NCBI GenBank assembly: GCA_903824665.1
Contig: CAIJXT010000015.1
Span: 124,001 to 188,000 of the forward strand
Reading direction: 5' to 3'
From: an uncultured Bacteroidota bacterium
Lineage (GTDB): Bacteria; Bacteroidota; Bacteroidia; Chitinophagales; Chitinophagaceae
Length of the DNA: 64,000 nucleotides
Under the pieces are notes generated by a model that had not been told where the DNA came from, did no database searches, and worked only from the letters and a program-made list of their open reading frames with translations. Numbering within the stretch: the stretch's first letter is position 1; each line of letters opens with the position of its first letter. Shown one piece after another: positions 4,981-52,793 of this stretch. The translations under genes were made by a program, and so were the position numbers.

Positions 4981-7386
4981 CTAATTCCTGAGGGGCTTAC
5001 CGGACACCAGTATGCTCTGCAGGCGCTCCAGTGTTTTCTTCTGTCCGCACAGGCTCAGGAATGCTTCGCGTTCTATGTCCAGCAGGAATTGCTCAGATAC
5101 CAGAGTGGGTTGTGACAGGTCGCCGCCACACATTACGTAGGCCAGTTTCTCGGCAATCAGTTTATCGTGCTCGGTGATGTAGTTGCCGCGCCACATGCCA
5201 TGTATACCTGCCATAAGCCCACCCAGGCCGCCACGACCCTGCACCTTCACATCATTACGTGGTGCAGGTTGAGTATATCCCTGATCCCACAGTGAAAGCA
5301 CCTTTTGCTTTGCATCGCCTATGCGCCTGTCCTGATGGATGGATATACCATCGAAACCCGGCCGCAGCACAAAATTTTCGAATGCCTCGTGTGCAGAGGT
5401 AGATACTTTTGCGGTGCCTACGTTGATGAACAACTGCTGCAGATAATTGACTTCAATATCTTCCTTGATGTTGCGGTCGCCGGCGCGTAGTGCCATCTCC
5501 TTGGTGCCACCGCCACCGGGTATGAGCCCCACACCTACCTCTACCAGACCGATGTAGCTCTCGGCAGCTGCCTGTACCGCATCGGCATGGAGGCACATCT
5601 CGCAACCACCGCCCAGTGTGAGGCCATGAGGGGCTACTATCACCGGTATACTGCTGTAGCGCATTCGCATAGTGGTGCGCTGAAACATCCGGATTGCCAT
5701 ATCGAGCTCATCGTACTCCTGCTCTACTGCGAACATAAATATGAGTCCTACATTGGCACCGGCACTGAAATTGGCACCACTGTTGGCAATCACCAATCCT
5801 TTGTACTGTTCCTCGGCGATCTGTATCGACTGCTGTACGCCAGCCAGTACCTCTCCACCAATGGTATTCATCTTGGTGTTCCAGCTCAGGGCTACTACGT
5901 CATCGCCGATATCGTATAGCTTACAGGAGCTGTTTTTCCATACCACTTTTTCATTCAGCCGGTCGAGGATGATGAAGGTATCTGCGCCCGGTATCTCGCG
6001 ATAAGCCTGAGTGGTGATATCGTAGTACAGCCTGCGGCCTTTTTCAGTTTTGTAAAAAGTGGTTATCCCCTTATCCAGCATTTGCTGCACCCATGGTGCA
6101 ACAGTTATGCCGGCGGCAGTCATTTTGTCCAGCACCTTTTTCACGCCGAGTACATCCCAGCTTTCGAAGGCGCCTATCTCCCAGCCAAAGCCCGCCTTCA
6201 GCGCATCGTCTATCTTGTAGAGATCGTCGGTGATCTCGGGTATGCGGTTGGAGATATAGGCAAACAACAGGTGGTGGAACTGCTTGTAAAACTCCCCAGC
6301 CTTGTCTGTACCATTATACAATACTTTGAGGCGTGCGGCCAGATCGTCGGTCTGCTTCGCAGCATCTATAGTGGCATACTTTGTCTTCACCTTGGGGCCA
6401 TACTCCATGGTCGCCAGGTTGAGGGTCAGTATCTCTGATTTTACACCCTTGCCTGATGGTGTTTTCTTATAGAATCCCTGTCCTGTTTTATCGCCCAGCC
6501 ACTTGTTGGCGAGCATGGTATCTATGAATGCAGGTATGGCAAAAATGTCCTTCGCCTCATCGTTGGGCACGTTGGCAGGCAGGGCTTTTGCAACCAGCAC
6601 CAGTGTATCGAGCCCTACCACATCGCCGGTGCGGAACGTGGCCGACTTGGGCCTGCCCATGATGGTACCGGTGAGTGTGTCTACCTCATCGACAGTGAGG
6701 CCGAGCGCCTGCATGGCCTTGAACACCGCCATGAAGCCGAACACCCCTACCCGATTGGCAATAAATGCCGGAGTGTCTTTGCACAATACTGTTGTCTTGC
6801 CCAGAAAGCGGCTGCCATAATCGGCCAGGAAGGCTGTGACTGCTGGCAGCGTGTCGGGGCCGGGTATGATCTCGAGCAGGCGCAGGTAGCGGGGCGGGTT
6901 GAAGAAGTGGGTGCCGCAGAAATGCCGGCGGAAATCTTCGCTGCGCCCTTCGTTCATCAGGTGTATCGGTATGCCCGATGTGTTGGACGAAATGATAGTT
7001 CCTGGTTTGCGGTACTGCTCTATGCGGGCAAAAAGCTGCTGCTTGATATCGAGCCGCTCTACTACTACTTCTATAATCCAGTCGCAATCAGCTATTTGCG
7101 GCAGGTTGTCGTCTATGTTGCCGGTGGTAATCCGAGCTGCTACGGCTTTGGTGTACACTGCCGACGGCTTGCTTTTGAGGGTGGCCTGCAGCGCATCGTT
7201 GACGATGCGATTGCGCACCTGGCGGTCTGTGAGCGACAGCCCCTTTGCTGTCTCGGCATCGGTGAGGGTGGCGGGTGCAATATCGAGCAGGAGCACCTGA
7301 ACCCCTATGCCTGCAAAGTGGCAAGCGATACGCGAACCCATAACACCACTGCCTATTACTGCTACCTTCCGGATACTCCTGTTCAT
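4981..7386 (-). CDS. 3-hydroxyacyl-CoA dehydrogenase / enoyl-CoA hydratase fusion (FadN type)
   Basis: Bifunctional beta-oxidation enzyme of 801 residues. The N-terminal half is an NAD-binding 3-hydroxyacyl-CoA dehydrogenase with the Rossmann motif VAVIGSGVMGSRIA at residues ~8-21, the SSNTSGIPI block, and the GTHFFNPP motif with the catalytic histidine, followed by the C-terminal dimerisation domain. The last ~300 residues are a crotonase domain with the oxyanion-hole segment ANSGANFSAGANVG and APHGLTLGGGCE. The order dehydrogenase-then-hydratase matches FadN of Bacillus, the reverse of FadB. The usual partner thiolase and acyl-CoA dehydrogenase are not next to it; the CoA-transferase pair lies convergently on the other side. 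Confidence 0.93.
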   Translation of the reverse strand: MNRSIRKVAVIGSGVMGSRIACHFAGIGVQVLLLDIAPATLTDAETAKGLSLTDRQVRNRIVNDALQATLKSKPSAVYTKAVAARITTGNIDDNLPQIADCDWIIEVVVERLDIKQQLFARIEQYRKPGTIISSNTSGIPIHLMNEGRSEDFRRHFCGTHFFNPPRYLRLLEIIPGPDTLPAVTAFLADYGSRFLGKTTVLCKDTPAFIANRVGVFGFMAVFKAMQALGLTVDEVDTLTGTIMGRPKSATFRTGDVVGLDTLVLVAKALPANVPNDEAKDIFAIPAFIDTMLANKWLGDKTGQGFYKKTPSGKGVKSEILTLNLATMEYGPKVKTKYATIDAAKQTDDLAARLKVLYNGTDKAGEFYKQFHHLLFAYISNRIPEITDDLYKIDDALKAGFGWEIGAFESWDVLGVKKVLDKMTAAGITVAPWVQQMLDKGITTFYKTEKGRRLYYDITTQAYREIPGADTFIILDRLNEKVVWKNSSCKLYDIGDDVVALSWNTKMNTIGGEVLAGVQQSIQIAEEQYKGLVIANSGANFSAGANVGLIFMFAVEQEYDELDMAIRMFQRTTMRMRYSSIPVIVAPHGLTLGGGCEMCLHADAVQAAAESYIGLVEVGVGLIPGGGGTKEMALRAGDRNIKEDIEVNYLQQLFINVGTAKVSTSAHEAFENFVLRPGFDGISIHQDRRIGDAKQKVLSLWDQGYTQPAPRNDVKVQGRGGLGGLMAGIHGMWRGNYITEHDKLIAEKLAYVMCGGDLSQPTLVSEQFLLDIEREAFLSLCGQKKTLERLQSILVSGKPLRN

Positions 7387-41305: not shown

Positions 41306-41464
41306 TTGTAACGACGTGCTGTATTTGGCAGTTTTGCTTCCGGAAACCGATAGGTATTGCGTGGTAAAAGGTAGCGCGCATCCGAGTGGTTTCCGCTGGA
41401 GCAGAACCCAGTGCAAAAACGGGTGGAACCGAAAAACCACAGGAGTAGGGCAAAACAAATACCA

Positions 41465-48421: not shown

Positions 48422-48495
48422 GAAACCCGCAACAATCGCGGGTTTCATTTTCTACAAAGTCGGGACGACAGGACAAGTTTCGAACTTGTTTATCA
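48422..48495. repeat. Dispersed repeat, copy D, with terminator and tRNA 3'-end fragment
   Basis: GAAACCCGC-AACAATC-GCGGGTTTC (48422-48446) is a strong hairpin followed by ATTTTC, which can terminate the SOUL gene. After it comes GTCGGGACGACAGGA (48459-48473), identical to the 3' end of the tRNA-Pro genes nearby (read on the other strand), then ACAAGTTTCGAACTTGT, a T-arm-like hairpin. Copies A-C share the hairpin and a degenerate form of this core. Confidence 0.6.
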
Positions 48496-48592
48496 GAGAC
48501 TTGATAGCGTTGCAAGCATTAATGAGTAAGATCGGGCATTAATTGGTAGGAACGGTCTGATTCGTGTATAGATTGGCTGAACAATGTTCGAA

Positions 48593-48832
48593 TTATTCGT
48601 GATGCGTTTTTGCATAATCATACAAAAATTCCGGGCAAAAATCATAACCATTAGGCCAGGTAATGTAACCATCTTCCACTTTTACGGAATCGAAAAACGA
48701 CCGTTCTCTTAATGCACTAGAGACGCCAGATTTAATAAAAGGCTTAATATCAATGTTGAATATCTCTCCATTATTAAACCTGACACTCAGCATATTGTTC
48801 TCAAGGGGCAACGCTTGTGTAATCTCTTTCAT
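48593..48832 (-). CDS. DUF2442 protein, probable partner in a toxin-antitoxin-like pair
   Basis: A 79-residue protein (ALPLENNMLSVRFNNGEIFNIDIKPFI...FFDSVKVEDGYITWPNGYDFCPEFLYDYAK) with the DUF2442 pattern, in particular the ITWPNGYDFCPEFLY end. DUF2442 and DUF4160 genes are frequently neighbours and were predicted as toxin-antitoxin partners. It lies five bases behind the DUF4160 gene and is surely in the same operon. Confidence 0.9.
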   Translation of the reverse strand: MKEITQALPLENNMLSVRFNNGEIFNIDIKPFIKSGVSSALRERSFFDSVKVEDGYITWPNGYDFCPEFLYDYAKTHHE

Positions 48833-48837
48833 AATTA

Positions 48838-49098
48838 TTAAGTTAATGGCTCAATTGGTTGCGGCGGGGTATCGTTCCTCAATAGTTCCCAATCTTTTTT
48901 AAGTTCGTCTTTATGATCAACCGCCCATTCCACTACCAACTTATAGACACGTTTTGGCAAATTTCCCGCCAGTATTTCTAGTGTTTCGATAGATACCTCT
49001 GCTTTAAAATCGTTATAATAAGCATGAAAATGAGGCGGGTTATGCTCATTATAGAACATCCGTATAATAATTCCCAAAAATCTACTTATTTCAGGCAT
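48838..49098 (-). CDS. DUF4160 protein, probable partner in a toxin-antitoxin-like pair
   Basis: An 86-residue protein with the DUF4160 signature MPEISRFLGIIIRMFYNEHNPPHFHAYY (the PEIxRFxGIxIxMxxxEHxPPHFHAxY motif) and the end VVEWAVDHKDELKKDWELLRN. Upstream frame beyond ATG 49098 would run through the tRNA-Pro and its terminator, so it is not real. A -7-like TATTTTTG lies on the minus strand at 49103-49110, directly behind the tRNA terminator, giving a leaderless or nearly leaderless message. Role within the pair (toxin or antitoxin) is not settled. Confidence 0.9.
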   Translation of the reverse strand: MPEISRFLGIIIRMFYNEHNPPHFHAYYNDFKAEVSIETLEILAGNLPKRVYKLVVEWAVDHKDELKKDWELLRNDTPPQPIEPLT

Positions 49099-49113
49099 TG
49101 TACAAAAATAAAA

Positions 49114-49141
49114 TAAAAAAAGCAGTTCTGTTCGAACTGCT
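49114..49141 (-). terminator. Terminator of the first tRNA-Pro gene
   Basis: On the minus strand AGCAGTTC-GAACA-GAACTGCT is followed by seven T. It lies 10 bases behind the 3' end of the tRNA gene. Confidence 0.85.
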
Positions 49142-49151
49142 CTGATTAATG

Positions 49152-49226
49152 TCGGGACGACAGGATTCGAACCCGCGACCACATGACCCCCCAGCCATAT
49201 ACGCTACCGGGCTGCGCTACGTCCCG
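49152..49226 (-). tRNA. tRNA-Pro-like gene (GGG) with expanded anticodon loop
   Basis: A 75-base cloverleaf: acceptor CGGGACG/CGTCCCG + A73, D-stem GCGC/GCGT, anticodon stem TATGG/TCATG, T-arm GCGGG-TTCGAAT-CCTGT. The anticodon loop is CTGGGGGG, eight bases instead of seven, because there are six C in a row on the plus strand where the copy at 51296 has five. Two stem positions also differ from that copy and turn Watson-Crick pairs into G-U pairs. It has its own terminator. It may be a +1 frameshifting tRNA, a decaying duplicate, or a homopolymer sequencing error. Confidence 0.75.
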
Positions 49227-49421
49227 AAAAAAATACAGGAACTAAATAAAGAAATAATTGAAATCACGAAACAGAGCGCTCGAAATTGCAATCTGCCCAG
49301 AACGGGAAATGGAGCCAACCGGAATAAATGATACCTTATCTACGTTTGTAACAAGCTTAAAAGTGCAGGGCCTTACAAATACACTATCTTAGCTATTGCA
49401 TAAAAAACATGCAACCCAGCT

Positions 49422-50980: not shown

Positions 50981-51085
50981 ACCTATGGTTCTATCGATCA
51001 GCGTTGCAACGCCCTGAAACAACAAGAGTGAAAGTCACTCCGATAGCTATCGGAACTCCCGATCTGTTTCTTTAGCGCTCGGCAG

Positions 51086-51112
51086 TCGGGGAAGCAGGAT
51101 TTGAACCATGCC
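51086..51112 (-). pseudogene. tRNA 3'-end relic
   Basis: On the minus strand GGTTCAAATCCTGCTTCCCCGA reads like a T-arm plus acceptor end with a bulged T in the stem; no matching 5' half is found. Nearby lie a perfect palindrome CCGATAGCTATCGG (51040-51053) and GCGTTGCAACGC (51001-51012). The 315-base gap contains no gene. Confidence 0.4.
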
Positions 51113-51259
51113 CGCCTTGGAAACATATTTTGACTTCTATATCAGAAGACTGTGAAAAGGCCATGCCAGGTGCGGTAAACATGTGCCCAACCAGAAAAAA
51201 ATATTGTAGGTAATGAGCTACAGCCATATTGCACAAACTTAGGGATTAAATCACAACGC

Positions 51260-51286
51260 AAAAAAGCCCAGCATTGCTGCTGAGCT
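51260..51286 (-). terminator. Terminator of the second tRNA-Pro gene
   Basis: On the minus strand AGCTCAGCA-GCAA-TGCTGGGCT, with one mismatch, is followed by a T-run. It lies 9 bases behind the tRNA gene. Confidence 0.8.
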
Positions 51287-51295
51287 CTCTTAATG

Positions 51296-51369
51296 TCGGG
51301 ACGACAGGATTCGAACCTGCGACCACATGACCCCCAGCCATGTACGCTACCGGGCTGCGCTACGTCCCG
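51296..51369 (-). tRNA. tRNA-Pro (GGG)
   Basis: A normal 74-base cloverleaf: acceptor CGGGACG/CGTCCCG + A73, D-stem GCGC/GCGT, anticodon stem CATGG/TCATG, seven-base loop CTGGGGG (anticodon GGG, G37), T-arm GCAGG-TTCGAAT-CCTGT. CCA is not encoded. Confidence 0.95.
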
Positions 51370-51422
51370 AAAACCATTAGGTTTTCATTTAAAAGGGGCT
51401 GCAAAGATAGTCTAAAATTCTT

Positions 51423-52099: not shown

Positions 52100-52510
52100 T
52101 TATCCGAAGTATTCCACATAAATATTGCGGGTCTCTACCAGCTTTACACAGTGCAGCAGCACTTCTCCTTTCTCGATATGTGGCTTCAGCTCGTTCCAGA
52201 TACCGATGGCGAAGTTCTCAGCGCTGGTGAACTTGCCCTGCATAAAATCCACATCAAGATTGAGGTTGCGGTGATCTACCTTTTCAACAACTACATTTTT
52301 GATGAGGTCTCCAAGTGTTTTGGCATTGAAGATGAACCCGGTCTCGGGGTGTGGCTCTCCCTTTATGGTGACATGCAGCTCGTAATTGTGCCCATGCCAG
52401 TTTTCATTGGCGCATTTCCCGAATACCGCGTTGTTCTCGGCGGCAGTCCAGGCTGGGTTCTGTAGTTTGTGAGCGGCGTTAAAATGCTCTATTCGTGTGA
52501 GGTAAACCAT
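52100..52510 (-). CDS. queD: 6-carboxytetrahydropterin synthase / PTPS-family protein
   Basis: A 136-residue T-fold enzyme with the zinc-binding histidines in FNAAHKL and HGHNYELHVTIKG, the catalytic cysteine in CANENWHGH, and the C-terminal CVKLVETRNIYVEYFG. It uses the product of FolE, and QueD-type members make the queuosine precursor. Located 80 bases upstream of folE on the same strand, so the two are likely one operon. Distinguishing QueD from a PTPS is not possible by eye alone. Confidence 0.9.
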   Translation of the reverse strand: MVYLTRIEHFNAAHKLQNPAWTAAENNAVFGKCANENWHGHNYELHVTIKGEPHPETGFIFNAKTLGDLIKNVVVEKVDHRNLNLDVDFMQGKFTSAENFAIGIWNELKPHIEKGEVLLHCVKLVETRNIYVEYFG

Positions 52511-52516
52511 TTTTTA

Positions 52517-52656
52517 AGTAGATAGTCGTTAGTAATTAGTAGATAGTCGAAAGTAGATAGTCGTTAGTAGATAGTCGTTAATAATTAGTCAAAAGTAGAA
52601 AGTCGTTAGTAGATAGTCGTTAGCGTTTGGTAATTAGTGTTTAGTAGAAAGTAAAC
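52517..52656. repeat. Heptameric tandem repeat, about 20 units
   Basis: Twenty consecutive 7-base units of form AGTNNNN, e.g. AGTAGAT, AGTCGTT, AGTAATT, AGTAGAA, with some drift toward the right end. It starts seven bases upstream of the queD start and lies in the gap to the next gene at 52794. No gene is contained. It may arise by slippage and its copy number is likely variable. Confidence 0.8.
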
Positions 52657-52793
52657 GTTTATCGGATATATACAAAAGCGTTCTTGCCCGGATTCCAGAT
52701 GTTATGGTTCTGAATTTTTTGCAAAATTAGGCTTAGTATGTGGTTTTCGCAAAATATTTGCCTGTAAACGTGGTTTTACTGATATGATATCGG

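What the first reader, a model, noticed from the sequence alone, without database searches (positions are those of the whole stretch)
49152..49226. tRNA-Pro(GGG) with an eight-base anticodon loop, like +1 frameshift suppressors
The sequence shows six C in a row on the plus strand at the anticodon, where the canonical copy at 51296-51369 has five. All other parts of the cloverleaf remain pairable, and the two further differences each turn a Watson-Crick pair into a G-U pair, so the fold is kept. From established knowledge, an extra G next to G37 in tRNA-Pro (the Salmonella sufB2 type) makes the tRNA read CCC-N as four bases. A natural gene of this form beside a normal copy would be striking. 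Alternatives are a decaying duplicate or a homopolymer miscall.
Basis: partly seen in the sequence, partly recalled or inferred. Interest (0 to 1): 0.75.

Follow-up and report, generated by a model that had tools for sequence, protein, structure and literature searches.

The report
Spare proline tRNA with eight-base loop
This bacterium carries, beside its normal proline tRNA gene, a second copy with one extra base in the anticodon loop; it resembles laboratory frameshift-suppressor tRNAs, but it looks like a recent, probably silent duplicate rather than a working tool.

Summary
ARAGORN and Rfam both call a tRNA-Pro at 49152-49226 (-) whose anticodon loop is CUGGGGGG (8 nt) instead of CUGGGGG in the normal copy at 51296-51369. 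The cloverleaf is otherwise intact, and a terminator hairpin follows. The two further changes keep pairing, but that is weak evidence of constraint (chance 0.16-0.25 in a simple model).

The extra-base form occurs in 1 of 35 genomes of the genus and 1 of 394 of the family, this genome both times; a control pattern for ordinary tRNA-Pro hits 349 of the same 394. The copy lacks the TAnnTTTG-type promoter box that lies within 195 nt upstream of 29 of 37 tRNA genes read in this genome. CCC codons are common in the window and no CCC +1 frameshift site was found there.

Best reading: a recently diverged, probably untranscribed tRNA-Pro duplicate with one extra G, among tRNA-Pro fragments that suggest repeated insertions. 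If transcribed, it should act like sufB2. A side finding may matter more: tRNA copies with rebuilt anticodon arms lie beside small GIY-YIG nuclease genes, here and in relatives.

The parts
49152..49226 (-). tRNA-Pro copy with 8-nt anticodon loop CUGGGGGG
   Evidence: ARAGORN 'gggg'; Rfam RF00005 48.9 bits
49187..49192 (-). run of six G (tRNA sense), five in the canonical copy
   Evidence: sequence
49115..49141 (-). terminator-like hairpin plus T run just downstream of the variant, different in sequence from that of the canonical copy
   Evidence: 49100-49151 folds at -14.5 kcal/mol, z -5.4; ends counted by eye
49227..49421 (-). region upstream of the variant without a TAnnTTTG-type promoter box; shared with a divergent methyltransferase gene
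   Evidence: promoter matrix best 5.1 bits in 195 nt, reached by 40% of shuffles
51296..51369 (-). canonical tRNA-Pro(GGG), 7-nt loop
   Evidence: 7-nt loop in all 27 relatives whose Pro(GGG) gene was read
51402..51409 (-). -7 promoter box TATCTTTG of the canonical tRNA
   Evidence: 16.0 bits
51260..51286 (-). terminator-like hairpin of the canonical tRNA
   Evidence: 51255-51295 folds at -20.3 kcal/mol, z -4.7
48593..49098 (-). DUF2442 gene (48593-48832) and DUF4160 gene (48838-49098), a toxin-antitoxin-like pair downstream of the variant
   Evidence: Pfam; the DUF4160 product hits NCBIfam toxin_DhiT below its cut-off, 77.8 against 100 bits
48459..48473 (-). 15-nt stretch identical to the tRNA-Pro 3' end and the base after it, with a terminator-like hairpin beyond (48422-48446)
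   Evidence: model R1 71.6 bits, of which it is a seed
51085..51107 (-). decayed tRNA-Pro-like 3' end between the two tRNA genes
   Evidence: sequence; 51004-51113 matches DNA beside tRNA-Pro(TGG) in relative G006

Best explanation
It is an extra, recently diverged copy of the tRNA-Pro(GGG) gene, lying among fragments of tRNA-Pro 3' ends that suggest repeated insertions at tRNA-Pro genes. The copy gained one G in its G-run (most simply by replication slippage) and two substitutions. It is most likely not transcribed, or only weakly, and so has no role today. Shown: the copy, its three differences, its absence from the relatives searched, the missing promoter box, and the tRNA-Pro 3'-end fragments on both sides. 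Inferred: that the changes are derived, lack of transcription, slippage as the cause, insertion as the source of the fragments, and the duplication route. If some transcript is made, it should be charged with proline and slip into the +1 frame at CCC-[C/U], as SufB2 does.
For: Present in 1 of 35 genomes of the genus and 1 of 394 of the family, against 349 of 394 for the control pattern, which takes any ordinary tRNA-Pro. G034 and G009 carry the canonical tRNA letter for letter and no variant. In 7 of the 8 stretches of relatives compared, the canonical gene lies near folE and PTPS as here; in all 8 the variant's surroundings matched nothing beyond the tRNA and up to about 13 flanking bases. 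No promoter box: 5.1 bits, against 9.3-16.5 for 29 of 37 tRNA genes read. tRNA-Pro 3'-end fragments lie on both sides. Relatives hold partial or decayed Pro copies. Three other odd tRNA copies called by ARAGORN in this genome also lack a promoter box.
Against: The cloverleaf is still complete (48.9 bits), with a strong terminator-like hairpin. Both substitutions keep pairing, which two random ones would do in about 16-25% of cases. A promoter of another sigma factor would be missed. Odd tRNA copies need not be silent: in relative G025 an odd tRNA-Pro copy has a TAnnTTTG box upstream (L068). The route of duplication was not shown.
Confidence: 0.64

Rival explanations
1. [quoted passage not shown]
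For: Same tRNA species, same kind of extra G, intact body. In E. coli, SufB2 gave 8.2% +1 shifting at CCC-C against 1.4% for ProL (PMC7803779, passages seen). A terminator-like hairpin follows.
Against: No promoter box; found in no relative searched. CCC is used 161 times in 18,453 codons and in 50 of 59 window ORFs, so expression would be costly. No candidate site with in-frame CCC and a coding-like +1 extension in the window. In Salmonella, another group attributes the shift to ProM slipping when ProL is defective (PMC3617221, passages seen); with a normal GGG copy present, that route would not act here.
Confidence: 0.1
2. An extra tRNA copy altered at the anticodon loop because elements in this lineage target tRNA genes there. 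The changed loop would be a scar or a cleavage-resistant form left by a small GIY-YIG nuclease element.
For: Elsewhere in this genome, tRNA-Lys and tRNA-Asn are followed by a GIY-YIG ORF and then by tRNA copies whose anticodon arm is TCCCGC-loop-GCGGGA; similar layouts occur in relatives, also at tRNA-Pro(GGG).
Against: The motif search found no GIY-YIG ORF in the window. The Pro variant has the normal anticodon stem, not TCCCG/CGGGA. Where the nucleases cut is unknown.
Confidence: 0.1
3. Sequencing or assembly error: the copy really has five C.
For: The only loop difference is in a homopolymer; the genome is a 35-contig assembly; reads were not available.
Against: Homopolymers of six or more are common in the window (111, of which 74 inside the chosen ORFs; choosing open frames favours intact genes). 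The two unrelated substitutions show a separate copy.
Confidence: 0.08
4. An expressed copy that simply reads CCC/CCU triplets as a minor proline tRNA, or serves a non-translational role.
For: Enlarged loops do not always imply non-triplet reading (PMC5009743, passages seen).
Against: No promoter box; found in no relative searched.
Confidence: 0.08

Closest known systems
SufB2 tRNA-Pro (Salmonella proL with G37a)
   Same: tRNA-Pro(GGG) with one extra G in the anticodon loop, otherwise intact (PMC7803779 and PMC3617221, passages seen)
   Different: SufB2 is a selected laboratory mutant of the only proL gene and is expressed; here a normal GGG copy is kept and the variant lacks a recognisable promoter
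Natural tRNAs with non-standard anticodon loops (a yeast mitochondrial tRNA, tRNAs of a phage, a glass-sponge mitochondrial tRNA)
   Same: natural genes with loops of non-standard size (PMC5009743, passage seen)
   Different: those are mitochondrial or phage tRNAs; this is a bacterial chromosomal duplicate
Rubritalea marina tRNA-Pro-like locus (L084)
   Same: 8-nt loop CTGGGGGG on a tRNA-Pro-like body
   Different: read by eye, its T-stem and acceptor 3' side are broken, so it looks like a relic

Membership tests
SufB2-type +1 frameshift suppressor tRNA | tRNA-Pro(GGG) with one extra G at or next to position 37 (8-nt loop) | tested here: met
SufB2-type +1 frameshift suppressor tRNA | body, stems and anticodon G35/G36 kept, so that ProRS charging is plausible | tested here: met
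   all stems pairable; Rfam 48.9 bits. The identity role of G35/G36 is recalled
SufB2-type +1 frameshift suppressor tRNA | gene is transcribed | tested here: inconclusive
   no promoter box found, terminator-like hairpin present; no expression data
SufB2-type +1 frameshift suppressor tRNA | +1 frameshifting at CCC-N in vivo | not testable with these tools
   needs a reporter assay
SufB2-type +1 frameshift suppressor tRNA | m1G37 modification | not testable with these tools
   needs RNA
Functional, selectively kept tRNA gene | conserved in relatives | tested here: not met
   1 of 35 in the genus, 1 of 394 in the family, own genome both times
Functional, selectively kept tRNA gene | own promoter or place in an operon | tested here: not met
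   no box in 195 nt; the two genes between the tRNAs are on the other strand
tRNA pseudogene or relic duplicate | extra copy, changes in the copy only, no conservation | tested here: met
tRNA pseudogene or relic duplicate | loss of tRNA fold | tested here: not met
   fold kept; the copy would be young or partly constrained

The most novel reading that the evidence does not exclude
The variant belongs to a wider class of extra tRNA copies with rebuilt anticodon arms, made and kept by small elements that attack tRNA genes at the anticodon loop (GIY-YIG nuclease plus tRNA copies with odd loops). The six-G loop would be a cut-resistant form that, when transcribed, also shifts frame at CCC-C/U.
Probability: 0.08. 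Interest if true: 0.8.

Novelty: new member of a known kind. Interest (0 to 1): 0.36.

Why it matters
A natural, active sufB2-like gene beside a normal copy would show that bacteria can live with, and perhaps use, quadruplet-prone decoding; PMC9094753 (passages seen) expects such cases to be rare. As it stands, the case shows how a frameshift-suppressor-like tRNA can arise as a spare duplicate. The locus also led to a recurrent association of GIY-YIG nuclease genes with tRNA copies that have rebuilt anticodon arms, which is testable.

Tried and rejected
A conserved clade of six-G tRNA-Pro genes was looked for and not found: genus 1 of 35, family 1 of 394, viral contigs 0 hits, genome contigs 4 hits. 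Of those 4, only L084 has an 8-nt loop, on a broken tRNA. L081 is a Pro(GGG) gene with a normal loop and a longer variable loop. L082 and L083 are not called by ARAGORN and, read by eye, also carry the extra base in the variable loop. The genome contigs pattern was strict, its sensitivity was not measured, and the answer warns that the window's own records may be left out; rarity across all bacteria is therefore an estimate only.

Minimum-free-energy folds do not give a cloverleaf for either copy and were not used as evidence on the tRNAs. A first script for the substitution test had a mis-set D-stem and gave zeros; it was corrected. An IS66-like transposase with a RecB-like part between tRNA-Pro and a 3'-end repeat in G024 was followed as a possible mover; matches were found in 3 of 35 genomes, G024 among them, so it was dropped. 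A short frame conserved beside the 3'-end repeats was not identified.

Limits of counts. One search used 37 ARAGORN genes from 33 own-genome loci; by my comparison with the list, four of its 39 Rfam hits were not covered. Some of the 29 boxes within 195 nt belong to a neighbouring gene of a tRNA cluster; within 75 nt the count is 25 of 37. One search read Pro(GGG) in 27 of 34 relatives; for the other seven no Pro(GGG) gene was read. One search used the 44 strongest rows (44.1 bits or more; weaker rows were dropped) and a hand-typed list that left out its fragment hits and several weaker full-length hits. Of the 44, 13 are the seeds of the model, most of them found because they lie near tRNA-Pro; of the seeds 9 of 13 and of the others 15 of 31 lie within 4.5 kb of a listed tRNA-Pro. 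No random control was run; a rough expectation of about 1% is my own arithmetic. The search was a hand-made motif on fetched loci, not a profile search of whole genomes; three of its hits (L047, L122 and one of the two in L188) were judged spurious by eye.

Full report
What is there. The window holds two tRNA-Pro genes on the minus strand, about 2.1 kb apart. The copy at 51296-51369 is an ordinary tRNA-Pro(GGG) with loop CUGGGGG. The copy at 49152-49226 has CUGGGGGG, which ARAGORN reports as 'gggg'. They differ further by C27 to U and A51 to G, both of which turn a Watson-Crick pair into a G-U pair. In a simple simulation, two random substitutions leave all pairs and the chosen invariant bases intact in 16-25% of cases, so the kept fold is only weak evidence of constraint. 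The first C and last G of either loop could also pair. Neither copy encodes a full CCA end. The variant is followed by a strong hairpin and T run, different in sequence from that of the canonical copy.

Who has it. The genome (4.73 Mb, 35 contigs, 99.4% complete) also has tRNA-Pro TGG and CGG genes. A pattern for tRNA-Pro with one extra base between U33 and the variable loop was found in 1 of 35 genomes of the genus. A similar one was found in 1 of 394 of the family, this genome in both cases. The same pattern one base shorter, which takes any ordinary tRNA-Pro, hits 349 of those 394. In the 27 relatives in which a Pro(GGG) gene was read, all have a 7-nt loop, and two (G034, G009) have the canonical sequence letter for letter. 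The three changes therefore most likely arose in the extra copy. In the large species collection, 4 stretches matched a strict form of the pattern. One, in Rubritalea marina, has a true 8-nt loop on a tRNA whose T-stem and acceptor look broken. No viral contig matched a pattern of this kind.

Is it expressed? In this genome, tRNA promoters follow the -7 box TAnnTTTG known from flavobacteria (PMC9723704, passages seen). In a leave-one-out matrix test, 25 of 37 tRNA genes have a box of at least 9.3 bits within 75 nt upstream, and 29 of 37 within 195 nt. The other eight are Pro(CGG), which has TAnnTTTG but different following letters; Thr(GGT), Leu(TAA) and Gly(TCC), which lie downstream of other tRNA genes; and four odd copies, the variant among them. 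The variant's best score is 5.1 bits, reached by 40% of shuffled sequences. The two genes between the tRNAs are on the other strand, so read-through from them is not expected. Transcription is thus unlikely, but not excluded; in relative G025 an odd tRNA-Pro copy does have such a box.

Would it matter if expressed? SufB2 reads CCC in frame and slips during translocation; m1G37 prevents four-base pairing. It shifted at CCC-C in 8.2% of events against 1.4% for ProL in E. coli (PMC7803779, passages seen). In Salmonella, another group holds that wild-type ProM slips when ProL is impaired (PMC3617221, passages seen). Here the normal GGG copy is present, so only the first route could act. In 59 window ORFs, CCC occurs 161 times among 18,453 codons and in 50 of 59 ORFs; 47 are followed by C or T. 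Of the +1 candidates, only one had an in-frame CCC in the overlap, and its extension did not look coding. That test covers about 1.4% of the genome.

Surroundings. In 7 of 8 stretches of relatives (L062-L069), the canonical tRNA lies near folE and the PTPS gene, as here; around the variant, only the tRNA and up to about 13 flanking bases match. Homologues of the neighbouring genes do occur elsewhere in relatives. Between the tRNAs lie a methyltransferase and a class A (subclass A2) beta-lactamase gene, and a decayed tRNA-Pro-like 3' end at 51085-51107. Downstream of the variant lies a DUF4160/DUF2442 pair. Beyond it is an 18-nt direct repeat (17 of 18 identical) of the tRNA-Pro 3' end (48456-48473) with a terminator-like hairpin. 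A sequence-only model of such 3'-end repeats, built from 13 of them, gives 44 strong matches in the genus. Of these, 24 lie within 4.5 kb of a listed tRNA-Pro gene: 9 of the 13 seeds and 15 of the 31 others. Shorter matches without the tRNA part are scattered through the genomes. Relatives also hold partial Pro copies. I infer that insertions at tRNA-Pro genes are frequent in this genus and that the variant sits among their traces. What moves this DNA was not found.

Side finding. Elsewhere in this genome, extra copies near tRNA-Lys, tRNA-Asn and tRNA-Arg have an anticodon arm TCCCGC-loop-GCGGGA. Read as a 5-bp stem, the loops have 8, 6 and 7 nt; the last C-G can also pair, and ARAGORN draws the Lys and Asn copies with a shortened anticodon. 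Four of 12 TCCCGCN{3,8}GCGGGA sites of the genome lie in these copies. At Lys and Asn, a small GIY-YIG ORF lies between parent and copy. GIY-YIG ORFs lie beside tRNA genes in relatives too: L068, L188, L201 and L055 (Pro), L185 and L186 (Ala), L209 (Lys), L199 (Ser). A hairpin of this kind is nearby in all but L055; in L199, and for one of the hairpins in L188 and L209, it is the arm of a tRNA that ARAGORN calls as normal. Eight of these ORFs, from own genome and relatives, were sent to Pfam and all eight hit PF01541. The hairpin-plus-T-arm pattern matched in 38 of 197 relatives searched; some matches are ordinary tRNA genes or lie outside tRNAs, so this is not a count of the units. One paper search with the terms GIY-YIG, tRNA genes, homing endonuclease, anticodon and Bacteroidetes gave 67 papers; of the 15 listed, 13 are on fungal mitochondrial genomes. 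That is not proof that the association is unreported.

Literature on natural cases. A review names few natural tRNAs with non-standard loops: a yeast mitochondrial tRNA, tRNAs of a phage, and a glass-sponge mitochondrial tRNA (PMC5009743, passages seen). Searches for natural bacterial cases showed no bacterial chromosomal example in the titles and abstract starts listed; one search returned no paper, and the listing was capped at 20 of 10,613. This is limited to the held library.

Verdict. The most likely reading is a young, probably silent duplicate of tRNA-Pro(GGG) with an extra G in the loop. Bacteroidota membership of the host is inferred from promoter type, not from a taxonomy record.

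Noticed in passing
L005:1523-2078 (own genome C30, about 158588-159165): tRNA-Lys(TTT), then a GIY-YIG ORF, then two tRNA-Lys-like copies with anticodon arm TCCCGC-TTTTTT-GCGGGA (the first copy lacks its 5' part), each followed by a terminator-like hairpin.
   Followed up: partly
L017:1128-1574 (own genome C26): tRNA-Asn, GIY-YIG ORF, then a tRNA-Asn copy whose anticodon arm is TCCCGC-ATTT-GCGGGA.
   Followed up: partly
L026:1304-1574 (own genome C6): Beside tRNA-Arg(ACG) a copy of the same body with anticodon arm TCCCGC-ATTTG-GCGGGA, which ARAGORN reads as tRNA-Lys(TTT); no promoter box; no GIY-YIG ORF found by the motif search.
   Followed up: partly
L068:9963-10389, L188, L201, L185, L186, L209, L199, L055: In relatives small GIY-YIG ORFs lie beside Pro, Ala, Lys or Ser tRNA genes, in most cases with a TCCCGC/GCGGGA hairpin-armed tRNA or tRNA-like copy; in L068 a promoter box precedes the odd copy, then GIY-YIG, then the intact tRNA-Pro.
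   Followed up: partly
window 48456-48592; L062:6439-6453 and 7087-7101; other loci: Repeats that start with the tRNA-Pro 3' end and continue with a conserved stretch of about 70 nt; 24 of 44 strong matches (15 of 31 apart from the model's seeds) lie within 4.5 kb of a tRNA-Pro gene, some in series with ordinary genes between them, like cassettes.
   Followed up: partly
L203:63-468 (G009 C63): Six TCCCGC-hairpin tRNA-like units repeated in tandem with a period of 78 bases.
   Followed up: no
L128:1842-4625: A 927-aa ORF with a TM0106-type RecB-like nuclease part and an IS66-like transposase part, between tRNA-Pro(GGG) and a 3'-end repeat; matches in 3 of 35 genomes of the genus, its own among them.
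   Followed up: partly
window 41391-41455: DUF805 RNA (RF03081), 58.3 bits, overlapping the start of an ORF at 41411.
   Followed up: no
window 52502-52666: Imperfect 14-base tandem repeat (GTAGATAGTCGTTA-like) between the PTPS gene and the next gene.
   Followed up: no
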